Source of the DNA: Methanomicrobiales archaeon
GTDB lineage: Archaea; Halobacteriota; Methanomicrobia; Methanomicrobiales; JACTUA01
Length of the DNA: 64,000 nt
NCBI GenBank assembly: GCA_030019205.1
Contig: JASEFH010000004.1
Location: forward strand, 1 to 64,000
Direction of reading: 5' to 3'
In this document: positions 1 to 32,815 of the stretch, one piece after another
Numbering within the stretch: position 1 is the first letter of the stretch
Layout of the letters: each line of letters begins with the position of its first letter
Position numbers and translations under genes: made by a program
The notes under the pieces: generated by a model
Database searches by the model: none
What the model was told of the DNA's origin: nothing
What the model saw: only the letters and a program-made list of their open reading frames with translations

Positions 1-3000
1 ATACATGATATTCAAGCCAGTTTCAATACCGTTCCTCGGAAAATGAGGATTGAAAGTTCTGAGTGCCGACATAATCGCGGCATCCGGGTTTTCGTTTCAA
101 TACCGTTCCTCGGAAAATGAGGATTGAAAGGTCCGAACCGCCGGGCGAGATCACCCGTGCCCGTCACGTTTCAATACCGTTCCTCGGAAAATGAGGATTG
201 AAAGGTTCACCCAGAACGTGCAGGACCTCCCGAATCGCGAGTTTCAATACCGTTCCTCGGAAAATGAGGATTGAAAGATGCGGAGGAGGAGGTCTTTCAG
301 CGATTCGTGCGGTCGTTTCAATACCGTTCCTCGGAAAATGAGGATTGAAAGTTCACCCCGATAGGGCGTGCGTGGCGCTCGATGTATTGTTTCAATACCG
401 TTCCTCGGAAAATGAGGATTGAAAGACGCGCTGAAGGCAGCCGCCGAAGAGTCAACCGACACCGTTTCAATACCGTTCCTCGGAAAATGAGGATTGAAAG
501 ATCTGGAGGAAGCGAACCTCTCACAGGCAACCCTCATGTTTCAATACCGTTCCTCGGAAAATGAGGATTGAAAGTGGACGATGTCCCGGAGACCCGTGCT
601 CGTATAGGTCTTGTTTCAATACCGTTCCTCGGAAAATGAGGATTGAAAGTGGAGCGTGTGCCCCGGGCATACGGACGGCAGAGCAGTTTCAATACCGTTC
701 CTCGGAAAATGAGGATTGAAAGAGGTCCTCTCGGACGGATCCCTCTTCGAGGTCCCGAAGTTTCAATACCGTTCCTCGGAAAATGAGGATTGAAAGCCTT
801 TGCGAGGTTTGCCCCCTGCAGGTTAGCACCCGTTTCAATACCGTTCCTCGGAAAATGAGGATTGAAAGGGTAGAGCCAGATACAGTTCCAAACCCCGTCG
901 CTGTGTTTCAATACCGTTCCTCGGAAAATGAGGATTGAAAGGCCGGATCGACTTCGGGGATGATGCGGTCTGCCTGGGTTTCAATACCGTTCCTCGGAAA
1001 ATGAGGATTGAAAGGCTCATTTGTGGAGGCGGCGACGGCCCTCGTAACGGAAGTTTCAATACCGTTCCTCGGAAAATGAGGATTGAAAGATGATCGCCAG
1101 ATGTGCCCCCCGGCCCGTTATCGATGTTTCAATACCGTTCCTCGGAAAATGAGGATTGAAAGAGGACCCACGAGGACTGATCCGCCCCACCGTTGAATAG
1201 TTTCAATACCGTTCCTCGGAAAATGAGGATTGAAAGAATTGCTGGATCCTCGTCTTCTGACTCCGCGTCTTTGTTTCAATACCGTTCCTCGGAAAATGAG
1301 GATTGAAAGGTCCTATCCACAAGTGCTACCATTTTGTTAAAGCACGTTTCAATACCGTTCCTCGGAAAATGAGGATTGAAAGCGCAGGTTTGCCCGGGAG
1401 AGTTGTGTATCGCTCAGGTGTTTCAATACCGTTCCTCGGAAAATGAGGATTGAAAGTGACCCCTTATACGAGTATACGACTGGCGAATACTCTGTTTCAA
1501 TACCGTTCCTCGGAAAATGAGGATTGAAAGTTGTATCCAACCACTCCCAGGAACATCGTCATCTGGTTTCAATACCGTTCCTCGGAAAATGAGGATTGAA
1601 AGTCACAAATCCCGAGGATTCTGCCGATCCGTGGTATTGTTTCAATACCGTTCCTCGGAAAATGAGGATTGAAAGGGCGAACATGTTCGGCAAAATCCTC
1701 GTCGGCACCGTAGTTTCAATACCGTTCCTCGGAAAATGAGGATTGAAAGACATTCTGCATAGTAACCCATATTCAGACTCCATTTGTTTCAATACCGTTC
1801 CTCGGAAAATGAGGATTGAAAGGAAGCTGCTCGTCGTGTCCCATAATGGATAAGCGGGTTTCAATACCGTTCCTCGGAAAATGAGGATTGAAAGCATTGT
1901 GGACCAGGTACCAGAACCGGTAATCATTTTTCGTTTCAATACCGTTCCTCGGAAAATGAGGATTGAAAGGCGAACGTCACATCGACCTCCGCGAGGCCCT
2001 CTGAAAGTTTCAATACCGTTCCTCGGAAAATGAGGATTGAAAGTCCAGATCAGCGCGCTCTTTCGAGGTTTCTTATGAAGTTTCAATACCGTTCCTCGGA
2101 AAATGAGGATTGAAAGCTGCATTCCCCACGATTCACCAGGTCTGGAAGGGCGGTTTCAATACCGTTCCTCGGAAAATGAGGATTGAAAGGCGGTTAAAAA
2201 CTCTTCCCGCGTTTTATTGGTGACTGTTTCAATACCGTTCCTCGGAAAATGAGGATTGAAAGGGCAGTATCATCAATGTGCGCCACGCGGATCATCTTCG
2301 TTTCAATACCGTTCCTCGGAAAATGAGGATTGAAAGGCCTGGTATTTCCCGGGCTCCAGGGAGACTCTCCCGGTTTCAATACCGTTCCTCGGAAAATGAG
2401 GATTGAAAGTCCAGGCCCGGGCGTTGGACCTCCCGGTGCTCTCTAGTTTCAATACCGTTCCTCGGAAAATGAGGATTGAAAGATCCTTTTGTATCCACCT
2501 CGGCCAGGTTGAGCATCGGTTTCAATACCGTTCCTCGGAAAATGAGGATTGAAAGAAAATGGCCGAATAACGAGCAGAAGCTATATATTCCGTTTCAATA
2601 CCGTTCCTCGGAAAATGAGGATTGAAAGGATAATTCTCAGATATGGTCACAGCAGATCCATCGTGTTTCAATACCGTTCCTCGGAAAATGAGGATTGAAA
2701 GATGGGCGCGGCAGATCGGCAAGTTTGCCGGCACGCCGTTTCAATACCGTTCCTCGGAAAATGAGGATTGAAAGATAATGATTGACTTATATTCTTGTTT
2801 TGTTTCTTGATGTTTCAATACCGTTCCTCGGAAAATGAGGATTGAAAGTGGTATGCAGGACATCCAACTCCGTTATCCTCATCGTTTCAATACCGTTCCT
2901 CGGAAAATGAGGATTGAAAGCGGATCCCCGAGTGTGGGATCGGTGGGGTCTCCCGGGTTTCAATACCGTTCCTCGGAAAATGAGGATTGAAAGAAAAATA

Positions 3001-4019
3001 TCTCCGCGGCGAGGTCCCCGCGGAGAAACGTTTCAATACCGTTCCTCGGAAAATGAGGATTGAAAGGAGATCCACACCGATCGTCCCCTCGGGGTTCTTG
3101 ATGGGTTTCAATACCGTTCCTCGGAAAATGAGGATTGAAAGATCTCCTGCAAGGCCTTGTCCAGGTCCCCCTCGGTAGTTTCAATACCGTTCCTCGGAAA
3201 ATGAGGATTGAAAGTGGTCCGGGGGGGCCCGGGCCAGGCCGATCGCCGCCGTTTCAATACCGTTCCTCGGAAAATGAGGATTGAAAGATAGGATTGGATG
3301 GAGGTAATATTTTAGTAAAAGAATGTTTCAATACCGTTCCTCGGAAAATGAGGATTGAAAGCGAGTCAATGGAAACAGCCTAAACAGGGGCATATATCGT
3401 TTCAATACCGTTCCTCGGAAAATGAGGATTGAAAGCCGACTTCAGCCCGAACTGTTTGACATCCTTGGAACGTTTCAATACCGTTCCTCGGAAAATGAGG
3501 ATTGAAAGAAGTGGGGGGTAAACGATGGATCTGCTGTGACCATGTTTCAATACCGTTCCTCGGAAAATGAGGATTGAAAGATGGCATCAAGAAGTCCGTC
3601 ACCCGCAGGTCGAGCGCGTTTCAATACCGTTCCTCGGAAAATGAGGATTGAAAGAGAGGATTCAGGAGAGAAAGGGCTGCCTCTAGAATTCGTTTCAATA
3701 CCGTTCCTCGGAAAATGAGGATTGAAAGATATCCGGGAGACCTTCGCCTATCGGGTGCTGCAGCAGTTTCAATACCGTTCCTCGGAAAATGAGGATTGAA
3801 AGGGAACGCCCCCCAGAGTGCCATGATCGACGCCTGGGTTTCAATACCGTTCCTCGGAAAATGAGGATTGAAAGCTCTCTGCCCGGGCCGGCGAACCGGT
3901 CGTCGCCTCGTTTCAATACCGTTCCTCGGAAAATGAGGATTGAAAGCTGGATCTGCGCATGTGGCGCGGAATACCAGATGCTGTTTCAATACCGTTCCTC
4001 GGAAAATGAGGATTGAAAG
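1..4019. CRISPR. CRISPR array, 55 repeats, left end outside the window
   Basis: Fifty-five copies of a 37-nt repeat, which begins GTTTCAAT and ends ATTGAAAG, start at 20, 94, 168, 241 and so on to 3983. All that I checked are identical, including the last one. There are 54 complete spacers of 35-38 nt, and positions 1-19 are the tail of another spacer, so the array continues leftwards. The repeat ends are inverted (TTTCAAT/ATTGAAA), with an inner CCTC/GAGG pair, so a crRNA handle of the ATTGAAA type can be drawn on either strand. No cas gene and no clear AT-rich leader is present, so transcription direction and subtype are unresolved; repeats of this look are usual in type I-B and type III systems of methanogens. 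Reading frames through the array are repeat artefacts. Confidence 0.99.
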
Positions 4020-4322
4020 CGGACATCCCGGGAGAGGTCCTGGCCAGGGGAGCAGACGATCGGGTATATGATTATGAATCCTCCGCCGGCATCGCTCTGC
4101 ATCCCTTCCCCGATGAGGCTGGAGCCGAACTCGCCCCATTCCCGGAGCAGGCCCGATCGCACGCGAGGGTGCAGGGGTGGGAGTGCGCCTCCCTTTGACG
4201 CGATAGGTCTGCCGGATCCGGCATGGGCCGCCGGCCCCCTGTCCATCTCAATGGTGCACATGCTGGATTGTGCGGCAGGGCGGGTCAGGACGGCAGGAAA
4301 AAATGGATGAGAAGTTCCGGCT
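4020..4322. other. Non-coding flank between CRISPR array and next gene
   Basis: About 300 bases with no convincing gene on either strand. The first bases after the last repeat are GC-rich, without the AT-rich character expected of a leader, apart from a short TATATGATTATGAAT patch near 4065. An ACGCGATAGG motif at 4198-4207 resembles the motif repeated in the non-coding islands near 9.3 kb and 22.6-23.2 kb. Confidence 0.6.
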
Positions 4323-32112: not shown

Positions 32113-32815
32113 TCTCTTTTTCCGTATTCCCGAAGTGCCGCACGTGCCAGAGGGGATCGCCCCCGCCGATGCGCGATCATGGCGGGAGGGATGCTCCCGA
32201 CCGCGGTCGTTGCCGGCTCGTCGTTCATTTCACGCATCCCTGTTTCAGGAGGGCGGCGCCTTCGATCCCCCTGCCACGCCCGGCGCCCCTGCAGGCGGAA
32301 CTCCGCTCTTCCCATGGCGCGGCAGGGCTGCCGTACGGATAGGATTCGGGGGCGGTCATGTCCCGGGCTCCCCGGGGCGTCCGCCTCTCCTTGGCCCCTC
32401 CCCGCAGTACGGCGGCGCCCGGCATCGCATGCCGCGCAGTTCCGGGAATCCCCTGCGAAGGACCCGGGTCCGTCCGCGATCGGGGGGGAAACCGATCCCG
32501 TCCTCCCGACGCGGGGCCGCCGGGGGGATCGGATGTGGGGGCGCCACCGCAGCCCTGTCACGGTTCCCCGGCGGGCAGGGTACGCCGGATACGGGCCCGC
32601 CGACCGCTCGATGCTCCGCCTCTGCTGCCCGCCTCCCCGTCCACGGGTGCCCGTATCGTGCCGCGATCGGGATAGCGGGGCTCCCGTCCGCAATAAAGCG
32701 TCCGGATCGCAGGGAAGGACCGCGCTCCCTGCCCCCGACGATCCCGAACGCGGCCCGGTTCAAAAGCGAGAGTGCCGCCCCTAGGGATGAGGAACCCGCC
32801 CCCGTGTACCCGAGG
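32113..32815. other. Non-coding GC-rich island after ndk
   Basis: About 700 bases in which every frame is Arg/Pro/Gly-rich and no domain is seen. TAATCTCTTTTTCC directly after the ndk stop (T5 at ~32117) can serve as terminator. No RNA gene recognised. Confidence 0.5.

What the first reader, a model, noticed from the sequence alone, without database searches (positions are those of the whole stretch)
2629..3543. Two CRISPR spacers overlap by 22 nt on opposite strands of the same target
The last 22 bases of spacer 36 (2643-2664) are the exact reverse complement of the last 22 bases of spacer 48 (3522-3543). The two spacers are twelve units apart and otherwise different, so they were acquired independently from opposite strands of one locus. 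Together they reconstruct 49 bp of an invader. A chance 22-nt match is very unlikely. It points to repeated exposure or primed adaptation, and the two crRNAs could base-pair with each other.
Basis: seen in the sequence. Interest (0 to 1): 0.72.

Follow-up and report, generated by a model that had tools for sequence, protein, structure and literature searches.

The report
Two CRISPR spacers from one invader
Two entries in an archaeon's CRISPR memory were cut independently from opposite strands of the same piece of an unidentified invader; this is real but ordinary, because the same genome holds at least three other overlapping pairs and such pairs are already reported in the literature.

Summary
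The last 22 nt of spacer 36 (2643-2664) are the reverse complement of the last 22 nt of spacer 48 (3522-3543), and the match stops exactly at both spacer ends. Chance would give about 5e-8 such pairs in this array. The joined 49-mer was not found in any collection I could search, so neither the invader nor the two PAMs could be checked directly. What it is: two independent acquisitions, spacer 48 first, from one or nearly identical invaders, in an array probably served by a type I-D system with an I-A-like adaptation module. Protospacers found for 14 other spacers give the PAM TCN. The pair is not special. Among 243 distinct spacers of this genome I found at least four overlapping pairs, including one between the I-C and the I-D-type arrays. 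Random sampling from about 240 kb of invader DNA explains that number. Overlapping, independently acquired spacers are described for Thermus (PMC6452258). Priming cannot be shown. The proposed crRNA-crRNA pairing is possible but no stronger than between other spacer pairs of the array. Verdict: a true observation, an ordinary explanation, low interest.

The parts
1..19 (+). 3' end of the CRISPR leader (contig starts here)
   Evidence: The same 17-19 nt precede the first repeat of all three arrays with this repeat (C4, C11, C55), while the downstream flanks of C4 and C11 differ
20..4019 (+). CRISPR array, 55 repeats GTTTCAATACCGTTCCTCGGAAAATGAGGATTGAAAG and 54 spacers; spacer 1 newest, spacer 54 oldest
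2629..2664 (+). spacer 36
2643..2664 (+). 22-nt overlap, copy in spacer 36
3509..3543 (+). spacer 48 (older of the two)
3522..3543 (-). 22-nt overlap, copy in spacer 48 (reverse complement)
352..388 (+). spacer 5: overlaps a spacer of the I-C array on contig C2 on the opposite strand, 31 of 33 nt
797..831 (+). spacer 11: similar to spacer 129 of array C11, 22 of 27 nt, same strand
3067..3104 (+). spacer 42: shares 15 nt on the opposite strand with spacer 82 of array C11; both read as a TnpB-like motif
   Evidence: motif by eye
942..977 (+). spacer 13: protospacer in G122:C73, 35/36, PAM TCT
3581..3617 (+). spacer 49: protospacer in G060:C123 (primase-polymerase gene), 33/37, PAM TCA
3729..3765 (+). 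spacer 51: protospacer in own contig C33 (portal gene of a tailed virus), 35/37, flank ACG

Best explanation
Spacers 36 and 48 are two ordinary, independently acquired memories of the same 49-bp stretch of one invader lineage, taken from opposite strands with their PAM sides pointing outwards. Shown: exact overlap, array polarity (48 older), recurrence of overlapping pairs in the genome, PAM TCN for the arrays with this repeat. Inferred: the adaptation genes that took them (csa1, cas1, cas2 and cas4 on contig C5, beside type I-D effector genes), that the invader was a virus or other mobile element met more than once, and that both crRNAs direct type I-D cleavage of the same site, each with its seed in the part the other does not share.
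For: Exact 22/22 overlap ending at both spacer 3' ends, chance about 5e-8. Other overlapping pairs: C4-5 with I-C-5 (31/33, opposite strand, two CRISPR types), C11-18 with C11-126 (30/37, same site in virus Blf4), C11-35 with C55-8 (27/31, opposite strand); weaker ones C4-11/C11-129 and C4-42/C11-82; three resampled spacer sets gave one hit at the lowest score and none higher. Model: 243 spacers drawn from five to ten 37-kb targets give 2.7-5.2 overlapping pairs; with the same targets one array of 54 has a pair in 11-19% of runs. PAM from 14 spacers: T at -3 in 11, C at -2 in 14 of 14. I-D effector and I-A-like adaptation genes on C5. Precedent: PMC6452258, PMC6858448.
Against: The invader was not found, so same-invader origin rests on the overlap itself and the PAMs of the two protospacers are unseen. 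C5 has no array on the stretch held, so the link from array to cas locus is by elimination (the I-C locus on C2 has its own array with a different repeat), and the PAM differs from the GTN of cyanobacterial type I-D.
Confidence: 0.87

Rival explanations
1. Primed adaptation: spacer 48 recognised a later, slightly changed copy of the invader and the type I-D machinery then took new spacers close by, spacer 36 among them, from the other strand.
For: Opposite strand and close position fit acquisition from both strands near a primed site, as mapped in Pectobacterium (PMC5059440). Spacer 48 is the older.
Against: Eleven spacers lie between them and none could be tied to the same invader; no target found. 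The Blf4 spacers of array C11 are spread over positions 10-126 and lie on both strands, not in bursts. A 2023 review states there are no data on priming by type I-D (PMC10212523).
Confidence: 0.1
2. The overlap reflects a conserved gene segment shared by two different invaders rather than one invader lineage.
For: Other pairs of this genome are imperfect (31/33, 30/37, 27/31) and come from diverged relatives; C4-42 and C11-82 share a TnpB-like motif.
Against: 22 of 22 nt identical, including what would be wobble positions in any reading frame.
Confidence: 0.12
3. Functional pairing: the two spacers are kept because their crRNAs base-pair with each other.
For: 22-bp duplex, -42.0 kcal/mol predicted.
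Against: Other spacer pairs without this overlap reach the same or lower energy; mature crRNAs are bound in effector complexes (established knowledge).
Confidence: 0.01
4. Chance match or assembly artefact.
For: None.
Against: Expected number about 5e-8; unique flanks on both sides; both copies in one contig.
Confidence: 0.01

Closest known systems
Independently acquired, partially overlapping spacers in Thermus (PMC6452258)
   Same: Pairs of spacers from the same locus that must be independent because they overlap only partly or sit in arrays of different CRISPR types; here 36/48 is the first kind and C4-5/I-C-5 is both
   Different: Those were seven pairs among 1567 spacers of 26 genomes; here at least four pairs lie within one genome
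Tiling of overlapping spacers into viral contigs, Sulfolobales CRISPRome (PMC6858448)
   Same: Overlapping spacers rebuild stretches of an unseen virus, as the 49-mer does here
   Different: Done there from a whole community's spacers; here two spacers give only 49 bp
Spacer acquisition around a primed protospacer in Pectobacterium (PMC5059440)
   Same: Spacers from both strands near an existing target
   Different: There measured directly; here no target and a different subtype

Membership tests
Independently acquired overlapping spacers | Partial overlap with different ends, in separate array units | tested here: met
Independently acquired overlapping spacers | Both match one contiguous invader locus | tested here: inconclusive
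   No target found
Type I-D CRISPR-Cas | Cas10d, Cas7d, Cas11d and I-D Cas3 in the genome | tested here: met
   Contig C5
Type I-D CRISPR-Cas | Physical linkage of these cas genes to this array | tested here: inconclusive
   No copy of this repeat in L043, L044 or L045, but contigs C4 and C11 end at the leader and C5 ends soon after cas4, so linkage may be lost to contig breaks
Type I-D CRISPR-Cas | 5' PAM GTN, as in Synechocystis I-D (PMC10212523) | tested here: not met
   A 5' PAM exists but it is TCN; the adaptation genes beside the I-D effector are of I-A kind (csa1, csa3). So I call the array's type probable, not settled
Primed adaptation | New spacers cluster around the site of an older, mismatched spacer | tested here: inconclusive
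   Invader unknown; Blf4 spacers of C11 scattered, both strands
Primed adaptation | Dependence on interference genes | not testable with these tools
   needs a culture experiment

The most novel reading that the evidence does not exclude
The pair, with spacer 48 older and spacer 36 taken from the other strand of the same site, is a trace of primed adaptation by a type I-D system with a TCN PAM, a process for which a 2023 review (PMC10212523) knows no data.
Probability: 0.08. Interest if true: 0.4.

Novelty: new member of a known kind. Interest (0 to 1): 0.17.

Why it matters
It is a small, firm sign that this archaeon met the same invader lineage at least twice and answered from both strands. 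Counting overlapping pairs over the whole genome gives a rough size for the pool of invader DNA sampled (about 240 kb for four pairs, some six or seven viruses of Blf4 size), which a single pair does not. It does not change what is known about CRISPR.

Tried and rejected
Target search: exact 22-mer in IMG/VR and GTDB genomes; 49-mer by blastn in phages and plasmids (only hits with E about 3); 22-mer with 3 mismatches in own genome and 232 genomes of the order (four hits in unrelated sequence); codon-degenerate patterns for the three open frames in IMG/VR (the one hit, L050, is 3.7 kb of what reads as a levivirus-like RNA virus and aligns at only 23 of 49 nt, chance); 18-mer and 20-mer seeds of both spacers in IMG/VR and the 20-mer in GTDB; whole array against phages and plasmids and spacers against 230 genomes; 49-mer against 111 viral contigs fetched with the C33 and Blf4 terminases plus four loci, 1.39 Mb, best 29 of 49 nt, which I take as noise.

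Rejected: crRNA pairing as the point of the pair; chance. The pair C11-52/56 shares 15 exact nt but not the rest of its overlap, so I do not count it. The first gene calls on contig C13 picked wrong frames and were redone.

Full report
What is there. The window starts at the first base of contig C4 of a 2.73-Mb, 73-contig genome. Bases 20-4019 are a CRISPR array of 55 identical 37-nt repeats with 54 spacers. Spacer 36 (2629-2664) and spacer 48 (3509-3543) share 22 nt as exact reverse complements, and the shared stretch ends exactly where both spacers end. That is what two windows cut from opposite strands of one DNA look like. Joined they give GATAATTCTCAGATATGGTCACAGCAGATCCATCGTTTACCCCCCACTT. 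No other two spacers of the array share more than 10 nt. Chance predicts about 5e-8 such pairs.

Polarity. Three arrays carry this repeat: C4 (54 spacers), C11 (159) and C55 (41). All begin with the same last 17-19 nt...ACATGATATTCAAGCCA, which I read as the end of the leader, while C11 ends in a different flank from C4 and its last repeat is changed. In C55 the four repeats next to that end share one changed base, as expected if new units copy the first repeat. So spacer 1 is the newest and spacer 48 is older than spacer 36.

Machinery. The genome has an I-C locus on C2 with its own array and a different repeat, and on C5 a type I-D set (Cas10d, Cas11d, Cas7d, Cas3 of I-D kind, Cas6) beside csa1, cas1, cas2, cas4 and csa3. 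By elimination the window's array belongs to C5; linkage is not seen, because contigs C4 and C11 stop at the leader.

PAM. I found protospacers with at most 7 mismatches for 14 spacers of the three arrays: in Methanoculleus virus Blf4 and its relatives, in G122:C73, in G060:C123 and in contig C33 of the same assembly. C stands at -2 in 14 of 14 and T at -3 in 11 of 14, so the PAM is TCN. No motif shows on the 3' side.

Where the invader is. It was not found. I searched IMG/VR, GTDB genomes, phage and plasmid records, 232 genomes of the order, and 1.39 Mb of viral contigs related to Blf4 and C33. The few partial hits are chance: two of the four 3-mismatch hits lie in genes that read as a PfkB-type kinase and CheB, and one degenerate hit is in what reads as a levivirus-like RNA virus. 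Most of these searches needed exact words, so a diverged relative of the invader could have been missed.

Is it special? No. An all-against-all comparison of 243 distinct spacers of the genome, with three resampled sets as control, gave at least three further overlapping pairs: spacer 5 of the window with spacer 5 of the I-C array (31/33, opposite strands, two different CRISPR types), C11-18 with C11-126 (30/37; both hit Blf4 at 32505), and C11-35 with C55-8 (27/31, opposite strands). Weaker ones are C4-11 with C11-129 and C4-42 with C11-82. If spacers fall at random on five to ten targets of 37 kb, 243 spacers give 2.7 to 5.2 overlapping pairs, and an array of 54 has one in 11 to 19% of runs, on opposite strands in 5 to 10%. 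The observed number needs nothing more than repeated sampling of about 240 kb of invader DNA. What sets 36/48 apart is only that it has no mismatch, which suggests the same or a very close invader. Seven such independent pairs are described in Thermus (PMC6452258), and overlapping spacers have been tiled into viral contigs in Sulfolobales (PMC6858448).

How it most likely works. Two crRNAs address the same site from either strand. Because the overlap lies at the PAM-distal end of both, each spacer's seed (the first bases after the PAM) lies in the part the other does not share, so one seed mutation would not escape both. This follows from the anatomy and from what is known of type I seeds (PMC10212523); it was not tested.

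Priming and pairing. Priming is possible but unproven: eleven spacers lie between the two, none with a known shared target, and Blf4 spacers are scattered along C11 on both strands rather than in bursts. The two crRNAs could pair (-42.0 kcal/mol), but pair 40/42 reaches -45.4 and 43/44 -42.0 without any shared 22-mer, so the pairing is not a distinguishing feature.

Noticed in passing
L083 (own contig C33), 2275, 3886, 10880, 13721: A 16-kb contig of the same assembly carries tailed-virus genes (terminase, portal, maturation protease, tape measure) and is matched by spacers C11-58 (37/37), C55-27 (36/36), C4-51 (35/37) and C11-56 (32/36): a self-targeted provirus or a co-assembled virus.
   Followed up: partly
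window 352-388 and L043 near 766: A spacer of the I-D-type array and a spacer of the I-C array overlap on opposite strands, 31 of 33 nt: two CRISPR types sampled the same site.
   Followed up: partly
G000 contig C11, spacers 79-104 and 133-158: A block of 26 spacers is present twice in the 159-spacer array, with a few base changes between the copies.
   Followed up: no
window 1-56 and 3983-4037; L035 (contig C55) both ends: The 41-spacer contig C55 begins with the same leader end and ends with the same 18 nt after its last repeat as the window's array, yet shares no spacer with it: two arrays in like surroundings, or two strains in the assembly.
   Followed up: no
L084 (Methanoculleus virus Blf4): At least seven spacers of array C11 match the lytic virus Blf4, with 3 to 7 mismatches; C11-18 and C11-126 hit the same site.
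   Followed up: partly
window 3067-3104; C11 spacers 82 and 136: Both read in one frame as a TnpB-like GVDLG motif, so some spacers may aim at IS200/IS605-type elements (by eye).
   Followed up: no
L045 9712-10659 (contig C13): A third Cas1 gene stands without a recognisable cas gene or array among the neighbours tested.
   Followed up: partly
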